Source of the DNA: an uncultured Pelagibacteraceae bacterium
GTDB taxonomy: Bacteria > Pseudomonadota > Alphaproteobacteria > Pelagibacterales > Pelagibacteraceae
Assembly: GCA_902628495.1 (NCBI GenBank)
Contig: CACONH010000001.1
Location: 248,001-312,000, forward strand
Direction: 5' to 3'
DNA length: 64,000 nt
Part shown: positions 2 through 4,146 of the stretch, in pieces
Layout: every line of letters starts with the position of its first letter
How positions within the stretch are numbered: position 1 is the stretch's first letter
Position numbers and translations under genes: made by a program
Notes under the pieces: generated by a model
What the model was told of the DNA's origin: nothing
Seen by the model: the letters and a program-made list of their open reading frames with translations, nothing else
Databases searched by the model: none

Positions 2-901
2 AGTACTGGATCTAAAATAAAATTCAGAAACAAAGATATTGAAGTTTTAAATTTAGAAAACTTTGATTTCTCTAAAGCAAATATCACTTTTTTCTCTGCA
101 GGAGGAAAAATATCTGAAAAATATGCACCTATAGCAGCAAAGCACTCTGTTATTATTGATAACTCAAGCTATTTTAGAATGGATCCCGAAGTTCCTTTAA
201 TTGTCCCTCAGGTTAATTCAAAAGACTTAGATATTATGAAAAAAAACATTATCGCAAACCCAAATTGTTCAACTGCTCAACTTGTTATAGTGTTAAACAA
301 ACTACATGATGAATTTAAGATTAAAAGATTAGTAATATCCACTTACCAATCCACATCAGGTGCTGGAAAAAAACCTATGGACGAACTAATTAAACAAACT
401 AAAAATATTTTAGATAATAAAAAAATCGATATTGAAAATTTTACAAAACAAATAGCATTTAATGCTATCCCACATATTGATCAATTTAGTACTGACGGAT
501 ATACAAAAGAGGAAATAAAAATGATTCAAGAAACAAATAAAATTTTAAATTCTAATATTAAAATTACTGCGACTTGTGTTAGAATCCCAGTTTTAATTTC
601 TCATGCAGAATCTGTTAACATTGAATTTGAAAATGAAGTTTCAGTTGATAAAATTAAATATATTTTGTACCAATCACCTGGTTGTAAAGTTATTGATGAT
701 AGAAATGATGGTGGATATATTACACCTATTGAGGCGGAAGGAAAAAATGAAACTTTTATTTCAAGAATAAGAAAAGATAATAGTCAAAAAAATGCAATTA
801 ATATGTGGATAGTTTCTGATAACCTTTTAAGGGGAGCTGCTTTAAATGCAGTAGAAATAGCCGAGGCATATATTAATAAAAAGAATTATGAAAAACGATA
901 A
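2..901 (+). CDS. asd: Aspartate-semialdehyde dehydrogenase, 5'-truncated by window edge
   Basis: This enzyme reduces aspartyl phosphate to aspartate semialdehyde with NADPH, the branch step to lysine/diaminopimelate, threonine and methionine. The reading frame is open from base 2, so the gene begins before the window; about 299 residues are visible and the N-terminal NADP-binding glycine motif is missing. Visible family signatures are SAGGKISEKYAP (from about base 98), SYFRMDPEVPLIVPQVN, the catalytic cysteine in NPNCSTAQ (Cys codon 266-268) and RIPVLISHAESVNIEF. The ATG at 179 lies inside the conserved SYFRMD motif and is not the start. The 3' end overlaps sdhC by 14 bases, which suggests translational coupling to the TCA block. 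Confidence 0.95.
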   Translation, partial: STGSKIKFRNKDIEVLNLENFDFSKANITFFSAGGKISEKYAPIAAKHSVIIDNSSYFRMDPEVPLIVPQVNSKDLDIMKKNIIANPNCSTAQLVIVLNKLHDEFKIKRLVISTYQSTSGAGKKPMDELIKQTKNILDNKKIDIENFTKQIAFNAIPHIDQFSTDGYTKEEIKMIQETNKILNSNIKITATCVRIPVLISHAESVNIEFENEVSVDKIKYILYQSPGCKVIDDRNDGGYITPIEAEGKNETFISRIRKDNSQKNAINMWIVSDNLLRGAALNAVEIAEAYINKKNYEKR

Positions 902-1271
902 TCCCATATCACCACATATTCAGGTTTACAATTGGCACATATCTTCGTTAGTTTCTATTTCTCATAGAATTACAGGTGTATTAAATTATGCATTATTAAT
1001 TCTAGTATGTTTTTGGGTAATAAGTTTACTGTTAGGCGAAAAAAATTATGAATATTTTAAAATTTTTTCAAATTCTTTTATAGGTAAATTTTTTATTATT
1101 GGTTTTATATGGTCTTATATATTTCAAATTTTGAGTGAAATTAGACATTGGTTTTGGGATATGGGATATGGTTTTGAACTCAAGACAACAAAAATCACAG
1201 GTACCATAGTTATACTAGGCTCATTTATTTTAACAATAATTCTGTATATCGCAAAAGGAATTTTAATTTAA
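888..1271 (+). CDS. sdhC: Succinate dehydrogenase cytochrome b556 subunit (membrane anchor SdhC)
   Basis: This is the larger membrane anchor of complex II, which carries electrons from succinate to ubiquinone in the inner membrane. The 127-residue protein has the family N-terminus SPHIQVYNW and the quinone-site motif SISHRITG (S23, R27), followed by three hydrophobic spans at roughly 30-50, 64-84 and 104-125. The conserved segment SEIRHWFWDMGYGFE is present. The position that holds the axial haem histidine in E. coli (H84) and in other alphaproteobacteria (HxxNGIRH) is Gln80 here (codon 1125-1127, caa), seven residues before H87. The quinone-site residues are kept but the haem ligand is not. 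The ATG lies inside the end of asd, and the last base overlaps sdhD. Confidence 0.95.
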   Translation: MKNDNPISPHIQVYNWHISSLVSISHRITGVLNYALLILVCFWVISLLLGEKNYEYFKIFSNSFIGKFFIIGFIWSYIFQILSEIRHWFWDMGYGFELKTTKITGTIVILGSFILTIILYIAKGILI

Positions 1272-1594
1272 TGTTACAAGCTACTAAAAAATGGATTTTT
1301 CAAAAAATTAGCTCAGTGATAATGGTACCATTTATGATTTGGTTTCTTTTAAATATAGTTGAAATTTTTAATGCAGAATATAATGAAGTTGTTATTTTTT
1401 TTACATCTCAGCCATCTAAAATATTATTCTCAATATTCATCTTGAGCACATTTTTTTACTCTGCTTTAAGTATTAGTGAGATATTTGAGGATTACATAAG
1501 TCAAGAAAACGTTAAAAAATACTCAAATTTAGGTGTTTTTTTGTCATCTTTAATTATTCCGTTAATTACCATAATTAGTATTATATATTTATAA
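1271..1594 (+). CDS. sdhD: Succinate dehydrogenase hydrophobic anchor subunit (SdhD)
   Basis: This is the second complex II membrane anchor, 107 residues with three hydrophobic segments (about 14-33, 50-68 and 84-106). The N-terminal WIFQKISSVIMVPF matches the family W..QRISG region, and E73-D74-Y75 matches the family EDY motif, whose Tyr helps bind ubiquinone. Counting back from EDY, the axial haem histidine (E. coli H71; HAxLG in alphaproteobacteria) is replaced by Tyr63 (codon 1457-1459, tac). There is no histidine anywhere in the protein. Together with Gln80 in SdhC this means neither standard haem b ligand is present. Identity is secure from position between sdhC and sdhA. Confidence 0.93.
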   Translation: MLQATKKWIFQKISSVIMVPFMIWFLLNIVEIFNAEYNEVVIFFTSQPSKILFSIFILSTFFYSALSISEIFEDYISQENVKKYSNLGVFLSSLIIPLITIISIIYL

Positions 1595-1597
1595 GTT

Positions 1598-3373
1598 ATG
1601 AAGTCTTACAAAATTATTGATCATGAATATGACGTAGTCGTTTTGGGTGCTGGTGGTTCAGGTTTAAGAGCTGCCGTAGGTCTTAGCGAGGCTGGATTAA
1701 AAACAGCATGTATATCTAAAGTATTTCCAACAAGAAGCCACACGTCTGCAGCTCAAGGAGGAATTTCTGCAGCTCTTGGAAACATGGGTGAGGATGATTG
1801 GCGTTGGCATATGTATGATACTGTTAAAGGTTCAGATTGGTTAGGAGATCAAGACTGCATTGAATATTTATGCAAGGAAGCTCCTCGAGCTGTATTAGAA
1901 CTTGAGAAATACGGAGTTCCATTTAGTAGAACTGATGATGGAAAGATTTATCAGAGGCCCTTTGGAGGAATGACCAAAAATTATGGAAATGAACCTGTTC
2001 AAAGAACATGTGCAGCTGCTGACAGAACTGGCCATGCTATATTGCATACATTATACGGTCAGGCAGTAAAACATAATACAGAATTTTTTATAGAATACTT
2101 TGCTTTAGATCTTTTAATGAAAGATGGTGAATGCAAGGGTCTAATAGCTTGGAATTTAAATGACGGAACAATTCATAGGTTTAGATCTCATATAACTATA
2201 ATCGCTACAGGTGGTTACGGAAAAATATATTATTCAGCGACATCTGCACATACTTGTACTGGGGATGGAAATGCAATGGTTTTACGTGCAGGCTTGCCTT
2301 TGCAAGATATGGAGTTTGTGCAATTTCACCCAACAGGAATTTATGGTCACGGAACTTTAATATCGGAAGGTGTTAGAGGCGAGGGCGGTTACTTAGTAAA
2401 TTCTAAAGGTGAAAGATTTATGGAAAGATATGCTCCAAAAGCGAAGGACTTAGCATCTAGAGATGTTGTGAGCAGGTCTATTGCTGTTGAGATTAATGAA
2501 GGTCGTGGAGTAGGTAAAGACAAAGATCATGTACACTTACATTTAGATCATTTAGATAAAAACGTAATAGAGGAGAGACTCCCTGGAATATCAGAGTCAT
2601 CAAAATTATTTGCAAATGTAGATGTAACTAAGGAACCTATACCGGTTGTTCCAACTGTTCACTACAACATGGGCGGTATTCCAACAAATTATAAAGCGGA
2701 AGTTTTAACTTTAAATGGATCTGAAAAAACAGTTCCTGGTCTTATGGCAATTGGTGAGGCAGCGTGTGTATCAGTTCATGGAGCAAACAGATTAGGTTCT
2801 AACTCTCTAATTGATTTAGTGGTGTTTGGAAGAGCTGCAGCAAAAAGAGCATCTGAATTAGTTAAACCTGGACAACCTCACGAGGAGATCTCGCAGTCAG
2901 AAACAGACAAATGTTTAGAAAGATTTGACAGACTTAGAAACTCAAGCGGTTCAAATAGCACTGCTGATTTAAGATTATCAATGCAAAAAACAATGCAGTC
3001 AAAATGTGCAGTCTTTAGAACTGAGAAAACCTTAAAAGAAGGCGTTAATGAAATAAGAAAGCCTTTTGAAGGAATGGAAGATTTATCTGTTAAAGATAAA
3101 TCTCTAATTTTCAACACAGACTTAGTTGAAACTTTAGAATTTGACAATTTAATCAGACAAGCAATAACAACAATGGACTCTGCATATTATAGAAAAGAAA
3201 GCAGAGGAGCTCATGCAAGAGAAGACTATCCGAAAAGAAATGATGAAAAGTATATGCAGCACACACTATCGTGGTGTGAGGGAAAAAGAACTAAAATTGA
3301 TTATAGGCCAGTCCATAGATCAACTTTAACTAATGATGTTCAATATTTTCCTCCACAGGAAAGAGTATATTAA
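1598..3373 (+). CDS. sdhA: Succinate dehydrogenase flavoprotein subunit
   Basis: This is the catalytic subunit of complex II; it oxidises succinate to fumarate at a covalently bound FAD on the cytoplasmic face. The 591-residue length is normal. The Rossmann motif [14 protein letters not shown] is at residues 13-26, and the FAD-linking histidine is H48 in [11 protein letters not shown]. The substrate-site segments [19 protein letters not shown] and [10 protein letters not shown], and the C-terminal REDYPKRND region, are all present. It sits 3 bases after sdhD and ends one base into sdhB (TAATG), so the four subunits are co-translated. Nothing suggests loss of catalytic function even though the anchors are unusual. 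Confidence 0.98.
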
Positions 3374-4146
3374 TGGTTCAAATAAGTTTGCCTAAAAACT
3401 CTAAAGTTCAAAAAGGCAAATATTTTAAGGATAAAACTGGCTCAAAAAACATAAGAAAAGTTAATATTTATAGATGGGATCCATCTACAGGTGAAAATCC
3501 GCGAATTGATACTTATGAAGTAGACATGGATAATTGCCCATCTAAAGTTTTAGATATTTTAAACAAAATTAAAAATGAAATAGACCCAACCATTGCCTAT
3601 AGACGATCTTGCGCCCATGGAGTTTGTGGATCATGTGCAATGAACATGGATGGAAAAAATGGTTTAGCATGCACCAAATCTCATGCAGAAATTAAAGGGG
3701 AAATTAATATTTATCCTTTGCCTCATTTAAAAGTTTTAAAAGATTTAATTGGTGATTTAAGCACTTTATATAAACAGTATGACTCAATTAAACCTTGGTT
3801 AAAAAATTCAAAAAATTTAGGTGATGCTGAAAACCTTCAATCAAAAGAGGATAGAGCTAAATTAGATGGCCTCTATGAGTGTATAATGTGTGCTTGTTGT
3901 TCAACTTCTTGTCCTAGCTATTGGTGGAATGGAGACAAGTATCTTGGACCAGCTGTTTTACTTCAAGCTTATAGATGGATAATTGACTCTAGAGATGAAG
4001 ATAGAAAAGAAAGATTAAAAAAAGTAGCTGATGAACTAAAATTATATAGGTGCCATACAATCATGAACTGTACAAATGCTTGTCCAAAAGGTCTTAATCC
4101 TGCAAAAGCTATTGCATCTATCAAAAAAATGCTTGCAACAAGTTAA
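3373..4146 (+). CDS. sdhB: Succinate dehydrogenase iron-sulfur subunit
   Basis: This subunit passes electrons from FAD to the quinone site through three iron-sulfur clusters. The 257-residue protein carries the [2Fe-2S] ligands in [15 protein letters not shown] plus the later GLAC cysteine, and the two ferredoxin-like cysteine clusters [12 protein letters not shown] and [17 protein letters not shown] for the [4Fe-4S] and [3Fe-4S] centres. All expected cysteines are present, so the electron wire up to the quinone is intact. Its start overlaps the sdhA stop. A short 24-base gap separates it from the following aldehyde dehydrogenase. Confidence 0.98.

What the first reader, a model, noticed from the sequence alone, without database searches (positions are those of the whole stretch)
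888..1594. Complex II membrane anchors lack both haem-ligating histidines
Seen directly: SdhC has Gln80 and SdhD has Tyr63 at the positions that, by gap-free counting from the flanking RH and EDY motifs, hold the two axial haem b histidines (E. coli SdhC H84 and SdhD H71; alphaproteobacterial HxxNGIRH and HAxLG). SdhD has no histidine at all. In contrast the ubiquinone-site residues (SdhC S23/R27, SdhD D74/Y75) and all SdhA/SdhB cofactor residues are kept. Known: in E. coli haem b is not essential for electron transfer to quinone. Inference: this complex II may be haem-free or bind haem in a new way, possibly an iron-sparing adaptation in the ocean.
Basis: partly seen in the sequence, partly recalled or inferred. 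Interest (0 to 1): 0.75.

Follow-up and report, generated by a model that had tools for sequence, protein, structure and literature searches.

The report
SAR11 complex II without haem ligands
The respiratory enzyme that links the citric acid cycle to respiration in a SAR11 ocean bacterium has lost both amino acids that normally hold its haem, and relatives show the loss in steps with the haem pocket being rebuilt, so this enzyme probably works without haem.

Summary
SdhC (888-1271) has Gln80 and SdhD (1271-1594) has Tyr63 where class C complex II has its two haem-ligating histidines; profile and structure alignments agree. In the window's genus 61 of 67 loci read have neither His and none has both. 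Relatives in the order show the intermediates: both His (including a genome matching freshwater LD12 by length), SdhC His only, SdhD His only. Outside the order 122 of 124 readable loci keep both. The pocket is rebuilt with the loss: the SdhC Gly one helix turn from the ligand is Glu in 85 of 85 loci of the affected genera. Over 309 loci, all 142 with both His keep this Gly; of 167 lacking one or both, 166 lost it and the last lost the matching SdhD Gly (not corrected for kinship). Quinone-site residues are kept and dN/dS is low. Best reading: a working, haem-free class C complex II, with Glu84 the mirror image of the Glu that replaces a haem propionate contact in yeast complex II, haem-free by cryo-EM (PMC13066397). 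Iron sparing is untested; no spectrum or complex structure was available.

The parts
888..1271 (+). sdhC, membrane anchor subunit C of succinate dehydrogenase, 127 aa
   Evidence: PF01127 93.4 bits, TIGR02970 115.4 bits; AlphaFold model pLDDT 85.2, E. coli SdhC 2wdq_C Z 14.6, rmsd 3.0, 116 aligned
1125..1127 (+). SdhC Gln80 (CAA) at the axial haem-ligand position (E. coli SdhC His84)
   Evidence: of 145 loci picked for having Glu84, 117 have a Gln codon (101 CAA, 16 CAG), 27 His, 1 Phe
1137..1139 (+). SdhC Glu84 (GAA), replaces the Gly of HxxNGxRH, one helix turn from the ligand
   Evidence: Glu in 85 of 85 loci of g1+g35+g36, Gly in 13 of 13 loci of g32-g34; codons over 145 Glu loci GAA 92, GAG 53
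1146..1148 (+). SdhC His87 (CAT), conserved RH histidine; a kept candidate for an alternative ligand
   Evidence: His in 67 of 67 g1 loci; His26 in 63 of 67
954..968 (+). SdhC Ser23 to Arg27, ubiquinone-site residues
1271..1594 (+). sdhD, membrane anchor subunit D, 107 aa, no histidine
   Evidence: TIGR02968 57.0 bits; AlphaFold model pLDDT 93.3, E. coli SdhD 2wdq_D Z 13.0, rmsd 2.0, 105 aligned
1304..1306 (+). SdhD Lys12 (AAA), position of E. coli SdhD residue 20 (offset 8); proposed partner of SdhC Glu84
   Evidence: Lys in 82 of 85 loci of g1+g35+g36 (2 Arg, 1 not aligned), Arg in 13 of 13 of g32-g34; pairing is inference from pseudo-symmetry
1457..1459 (+). SdhD Tyr63 (TAC) at the axial haem-ligand position (E. 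coli SdhD His71)
   Evidence: genus: Phe 53, Tyr 10, His 4 of 67
1460..1462 (+). SdhD Ser64 (TCT), possible hydrogen-bond partner of SdhC Gln80
   Evidence: Ser in 65 of 67 g1 loci, Met or Leu in 13 of 13 of g32-g34; partnership is inference
1469..1471 (+). SdhD Ser67 (AGT), replaces the Gly of HxxxG
   Evidence: Ser/Thr/Asn in 85 of 85 loci of g1+g35+g36, Gly in 13 of 13 of g32-g34
1490..1495 (+). SdhD Asp74-Tyr75, ubiquinone-site residues
1598..3373 (+). sdhA, flavoprotein subunit
   Evidence: TIGR01816 950.9 bits against cut-off 727.35
3373..4146 (+). sdhB, iron-sulfur subunit
   Evidence: NF004616 358.6 bits against cut-off 228

Best explanation
This is the only succinate:quinone reductase found in the own assembly. 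It is a working class C complex II whose haem b site has been abolished and refilled. Electrons pass from FAD through the three iron-sulfur clusters of SdhB straight to ubiquinone at the kept quinone site, without haem. In the family the SdhD ligand went first, together with Gly-to-Glu84 in SdhC and after Gly67 of SdhD had become Ser; the SdhC ligand then became Gln in the window's genus. The four-helix bundle that haem used to pin together is held instead by direct contacts, most likely a Glu84(SdhC)-Lys12(SdhD) salt bridge in place of a haem propionate contact, and Gln80 hydrogen bonds. Shown: the residues, their distribution, the Gly/His association (uncorrected for kinship), the low dN/dS. 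Inferred: absence of haem, the order of events, the contacts, the electron path.
For: Both ligand positions lack His in 61 of 67 genus loci and no genus locus read has both. Glu84 is in 85 of 85 loci of g1, g35 and g36 and in 60 of 62 Pelagibacter-titled loci, the other two having both His; both Glu codons are in use (92 GAA, 53 GAG), so the residue is held by selection. All 142 loci with both His have Gly84; of 167 without both, 166 lost Gly84 and 1 lost SdhD Gly67. Median dN/dS 0.19 (SdhC) and 0.28 (SdhD) in the genus, not above haem-type relatives (0.22, 0.42). Quinone-site residues kept. One SdhC/SdhD pair only in the own genome, and one SdhC match each in the single-contig relatives G012 and G082, whose loci read Q/F. 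The own genome keeps ferrochelatase and COX1, so the trait is not loss of haem itself. Yeast complex II with His/Tyr at these positions is haem-free by cryo-EM; its Sdh4 Glu112 replaces a Gly four residues after Tyr108 and bonds Sdh3 Arg97 in place of a haem propionate (PMC13066397, passages). SdhC and SdhD align to each other with 84 on 67, 80 on 63 and 27 on 12, so Glu84-Lys12 is the mirror pair.
Against: No protein or spectrum was examined. E. coli axial-ligand mutants can retain haem (a cited paper's title, seen in a reference list), so the one-His relatives may still bind it. SdhC His87 is in all genus loci read and could serve as a ligand. Four genus loci carry His at SdhD 63 and two at SdhC 80. 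No complex was modelled, only single chains. The Gly/His association rests on few independent changes: the kinship-corrected pair tests were not significant. Other columns besides the pocket also separate the two sets.
Confidence: 0.8

Rival explanations
1. The complex still binds one haem b, with substitute ligands such as SdhC His87 or with one or no axial protein ligand.
For: His87 in 67 of 67 genus loci; E. coli axial-ligand mutants are reported to retain haem (title in a reference list); PDB entries of the single Met mutants exist.
Against: His87 is also kept in 84 of 88 mostly both-His class loci, so its conservation needs no new role; Glu at the Gly next to the ligand is hard to fit with haem (inference); His26 is absent in 4 of 67 genus loci.
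Confidence: 0.13
2. The anchors are decaying: relaxed selection in a streamlined lineage removes the ligands and the complex is failing or replaced.
For: Repeated loss in small genomes; varied residues at SdhD 63 (Phe, Tyr, His, Asn).
Against: dN/dS 0.19 and 0.28, quinone-site residues and Glu84 kept, open sdhCDAB, no second copy in the own genome.
Confidence: 0.05
3. The loss is an adaptation to save iron or haem in the iron-poor ocean (a reason for the loss; it can be true together with the best explanation).
For: Loss is widespread in SAR11, and a genome of the exact length of the freshwater LD12 isolate keeps both His (G204, 1,160,202 bases, L117).
Against: SAR116-titled loci keep both His (L206, L212, L232); two non-SAR11 1.4-Mb genomes have each lost one His; haem is still made. 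Nine iron atoms per complex remain in clusters (recalled). Habitat was not tested against the trait.
Confidence: 0.2
4. Alignment artefact or assembly error: a His lies at either ligand position through an unseen indel.
For: None found.
Against: Gap-free profile and structure alignments; the same residues in many separately assembled genomes.
Confidence: 0.01

Closest known systems
Class C complex II, E. coli SdhCDAB and mitochondrial complex II
   Same: Two three-helix anchors, TIGR02970 and TIGR02968 membership, quinone-site Ser/Arg/Asp/Tyr, fold
   Different: Both axial His absent; Gly beside each ligand replaced by Glu (SdhC) and Ser (SdhD)
Saccharomyces cerevisiae complex II, haem-free class C (PMC13066397, passages seen)
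   Same: Tyr at the SdhD ligand position; a Glu replaces the ligand-neighbouring Gly and there takes over a propionate contact
   Different: Yeast keeps the SdhC His (His156) and puts the Glu in SdhD (Glu112); the window has Gln80 in SdhC and puts the Glu in SdhC. Independent origin is inferred from the kept His in SAR11 relatives.
Tetrahymena and Perkinsus complex II (named as haem-less in PMC13066397; papers not read)
   Same: Mitochondrial complex II without haem
   Different: Described there as divergent eukaryotic enzymes; residues not compared here
Class D quinol:fumarate reductase (E. coli FrdABCD)
   Same: Two anchors, no haem (PMC10238741, passage)
   Different: For the window's SdhC the FrdD model NF003977 scores 13 bits against cut-off 60; the anchors belong to the SdhC/SdhD families

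Membership tests
Class C complex II (by descent) | SdhC and SdhD family membership | tested here: met
   TIGR02970 115.4 bits (cut-off 52.3), TIGR02968 57.0 (41.8)
Class C complex II (by descent) | two anchor subunits of three transmembrane helices each | tested here: met
   AlphaFold models: three long helices each, plus short helices; best matches E. coli SdhC and SdhD
Class C complex II (by cofactor) | axial His in SdhC and in SdhD for one haem b | tested here: not met
   Gln80 and Tyr63
Class C complex II (by cofactor) | one haem b bound | not testable with these tools
   needs a spectrum or a structure
Class C complex II (by descent) | quinone-site residues | tested here: met
   Ser23, Arg27, Asp74, Tyr75
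Haem-free class C complex II as in yeast | non-His at a ligand position plus an acidic residue replacing the neighbouring Gly | tested here: met
   Gln80/Tyr63 and Glu84; in yeast the acidic residue sits in the other subunit
Haem-free class C complex II as in yeast | SdhC His to SdhD Tyr hydrogen bond | tested here: not met
   SdhC His absent in the window; Tyr63 present
Class D (FrdC/FrdD) | FrdC/FrdD family anchors | tested here: not met
   SdhC against FrdD models: NF003977 13 bits against 60, PF02313 17.1 against 25; no FrdC model listed
Class F | single six-helix anchor with Rieske cluster (PMC10238741, passage) | tested here: not met
   two separate three-helix anchors

The most novel reading that the evidence does not exclude
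Haem b of complex II has been replaced by a protein-only plug in a bacterial lineage: in SAR11 the ligand-neighbouring Gly of SdhC became a fixed Glu that salt-bridges SdhD Lys12, and both His were then lost stepwise. Haem-ligand loss with loss of the neighbouring Gly arose separately in the sister SAR11 family (SdhC Tyr or Asn), in two other small-genome alphaproteobacteria (one with Glu at the yeast Glu112 position) and, mirror-wise, in yeast. Haem b would then be a dispensable structural pin, not an electron carrier needed for turnover.
Probability: 0.45. Interest if true: 0.75.

Novelty: new variant of a known kind. Interest (0 to 1): 0.62.

Why it matters
[quoted passage not shown] The role of haem b in E. 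coli complex II is called highly ambiguous (PMC3290573, abstract start). This order offers a natural series with both ligands, either ligand and neither, beside the same kept quinone site, so the question can be tested without designing mutants. It also bears on iron and haem budgets of ocean bacteria.

Tried and rejected
Alignment shift: rejected. A second, haem-bearing complex II: none in the own genome (one SdhC and one SdhD); most matched genus genomes show one SdhC match, seven list two (G021, G040, G042, G114, G376, G425, G436) and were not inspected for it. Genomes without an SdhC match: 11 were followed up with sdhA; in 4 (G314, G272, G078, G274) an sdhA match over the cut-off lies at or near a contig start or is cut short, which suggests assembly gaps; 7 had no sdhA over the cut-off. 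Five genomes with a weak SdhC match were in the same call: G303 and G417 have sdhA, G041, G100 and G142 do not. So absence of sdh in those assemblies is not explained in each case. Loss of haem synthesis: rejected, ferrochelatase and COX1 are present; cytochrome b PF00033 was not found in the own 91.7%-complete assembly but is in 15 of 17 genus genomes searched, the own one being one of the two misses. Correlated-change tests on the tree: too few independent pairs, not significant. The tree is a quick search with 34 open forks; the order of losses inside f1 rests on it and on parsimony; in g35/g36 SdhC His and Gln are mixed, so Gln arose more than once or reverted. Whether His63 in 4 genus loci is kept or regained was not resolved. 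Structure of the SdhC-SdhD pair with or without haem could not be run. Papers PMC2888824 and PMC2084287 are not held; a residue search in PMC3290573 found nothing.

Sampling limits: the loci that searches returned by themselves (L003-L032, L245-L272) were the best-scoring SdhC matches, which may favour both-His forms; the 60 loci were chosen by me toward low scores and small genomes, and those also by me; many matching genomes were not fetched. Named loci L165-L244 are the best 80 of 584 to a both-His query; 7 of them are identical in the last 360 bases of SdhC to 6 of the genome loci, so counts hold some repeats. L231 (X) and L020 (SdhD not aligned) were dropped from the count of 309. L002, a second slice of the own genome, and the loci were left out of the counts.

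Full report
What is there. The window starts inside an asd-like gene (name recalled), followed by sdhC 888-1271, sdhD 1271-1594, sdhA 1598-3373 and sdhB 3373-4146, tightly packed on the + strand. SdhC and SdhD score above the curated cut-offs of TIGR02970 and TIGR02968. The own assembly (1.0 Mb, 17 contigs, 91.7% complete) has one SdhC and one SdhD. Of the 80 named loci found with an SdhC profile, 62 have Pelagibacter- names in their titles, that is SAR11; five of these are identical over the last 360 bases of SdhC to genomes that the search places in the window's genus g1, and two to genomes of g35.

The ligand columns. SdhC Gln80 and SdhD Tyr63 sit on the columns of the two axial histidines. 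The SdhC profile aligns without a gap across the ligand region to vertebrate SDHC; the SdhD profile aligns without a gap to E. coli SdhD over 96 positions; the SdhD model superposes on E. coli SdhD with 105 residues at offset 8 (Z 13.0, rmsd 2.0); the SdhC model on E. coli SdhC with Z 14.6, rmsd 3.0, 116 aligned.

Distribution. I read the two columns (SdhC/SdhD) in 311 loci (groups). Window's genus g1, 67 loci: Q/F 51, Q/Y 10, Q/H 4, H/F 2, none with both His. Same family f1: g35 (11) H/F 10, Q/F 1; g36 (7) Q/F 5, H/F 2; g37 (1), g32 (4), g33 (4), g34 (5) both His. Sister family f2: g2 (16) and g4 (3) Y/H, g5 (1) N/H, g3 (5) both His in 4, with SdhD not aligned in the fifth. The 62 named Pelagibacter-titled loci: Q/F 35, H/F 12, Q/Y 10, H/H 2, Q/N 1, H/N 1, F/F 1. 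Outside the order: 19 of 19, 17 of 18 named with one unreadable X, 86 of 88, together 122 of 124 readable with both His. The two exceptions are both 1.4-Mb genomes: G568 (Y/H) and G621 (H/Y). One both-His SAR11 genome, G204 of g33, is a single contig of 1,160,202 bases, exactly the length reported for the freshwater LD12 isolate LSUCC0530 (PMC6018831, passages); the identification rests on that length.

Order of events. On a tree of SdhA plus SdhB (99 rows, quick search) f1 and f2 are each supported (SH-aLRT 100), g32-g34 form one clade (97), and g37, g35/g36 and g1 form another (100). Fewest changes for His presence: SdhC 8, SdhD 4; Gly84 4; SdhD Gly67 1; both-His 5. The g37 locus and the named locus L169 beside it have both His but Ser already at SdhD 67; g35 mostly keeps the SdhC His but has Glu84 and no SdhD His; g1 has mostly lost both. 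This suggests the path Gly67 to Ser, then SdhD His lost with Gly84 to Glu, then SdhC His to Gln. In f2 the SdhC His went instead, with Gly84 to Cys, Ser or Asp. Direction is inference from parsimony, and some branches are weak.

Rebuilt pocket. Comparing g1+g35+g36 (85 loci) with g32-g34 (13): SdhC 84 Glu 85 against Gly 13; SdhD 67 Ser/Thr/Asn 85 against Gly 13; SdhD 12 Lys 82 against Arg 13; SdhD 64 Ser 72 of 85 against Met/Leu 13. Other columns also separate the two sets (for example SdhC 79 and 120, SdhD 5 and 50), so not every difference concerns the pocket. Over 309 loci, both His went with Gly84 in 142 of 142, and absence of one or both with loss of Gly84 in 166 of 167, the last having lost SdhD Gly67. 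These counts are not corrected for kinship; the pair tests that are corrected had too few cases and were not significant.

Selection. Over the 145 loci picked for Glu84 the codon is GAA in 92 and GAG in 53; at SdhC 80 of the same loci Gln is CAA 101, CAG 16, with His 27 and Phe 1. Median pairwise dN/dS in the genus is 0.19 for SdhC (259 pairs) and 0.28 for SdhD (308 pairs); in g32-g34 0.22 (25 pairs) and 0.42 (68 pairs), with median synonymous divergence 1.0 to 1.2, so values are rough. Quinone-site residues did not vary in the groups tabulated.

Mechanism. In yeast complex II no haem is seen by cryo-EM, consistent with spectra; Sdh3 His156 bonds Sdh4 Tyr108 directly, and Sdh4 Glu112, which replaces a Gly, bonds Sdh3 Arg97 in place of a haem propionate (PMC13066397, passages). 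The same paper states from E. coli mutants that haem is needed neither for assembly nor for redox activity. SdhC and SdhD profiles align to each other (hhalign probability 82%), with SdhC 80, 84, 91 and 27 on SdhD 63, 67, 74 and 12. Yeast Glu112, four after the SdhD ligand position, corresponds to SdhD 67; SAR11 Glu84 is its mirror position. By symmetry the partner of Glu84 is SdhD Lys12. This pair is inference. G568 (L273) has Glu at SdhD 67, the yeast position itself. Gln80 cannot bond a Phe side chain, so in most of the genus a partner such as SdhD Ser64 is needed; also inference.

Why. The lineage still makes and uses haem: ferrochelatase and COX1 in the own genome and cytochrome b in 15 of 17 genus genomes. 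Saving iron is possible but was not tested. SAR116-titled loci keep both His. A near-neutral loss once a Glu could replace haem as a pin fits as well.

Literature. All ten searches of the held library were used; nine bear on the question, one on strain genomes. In their listings (titles and starts of abstracts, at most 20 papers shown each; one search returned none) I saw no paper on missing haem ligands in SAR11 or in a bacterial class C complex II. Most subscription papers are not held, so earlier notice cannot be excluded. The iron-limitation study of Ca. Pelagibacter ubique has no hit for succinate dehydrogenase or sdh (PMC2864753, word search of the main text).

Noticed in passing
L033-L052 (f2 genomes): The sister SAR11 family, apart from g3, keeps the SdhD His but has Tyr or Asn for the SdhC His, the mirror image of yeast complex II.
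   Followed up: partly
L273 (G568) and L297 (G621): Two alphaproteobacteria outside the order with 1.4-Mb genomes each lost one haem ligand; L273 has Glu at the SdhD Gly, the position of yeast Glu112.
   Followed up: partly
L064, L080 (SdhC His80) and L070, L072, L082, L093 (SdhD His63): Six genus loci have His at one ligand position; retention or single-base reversion was not resolved.
   Followed up: no
G314, G272, G078, G274: Four SAR11 assemblies have sdhA at or near a contig start, or cut short, and no sdhC match, as if assembly breaks at the sdh genes.
   Followed up: partly
G000: Cytochrome b (PF00033) was not found in the own assembly although 15 of 17 genus genomes have it; probably a gap.
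   Followed up: partly
window 888-4146: sdhC overlaps the gene before it, sdhC and sdhD share one base (TAATG), and sdhA and sdhB share one base, a tight packing.
   Followed up: no
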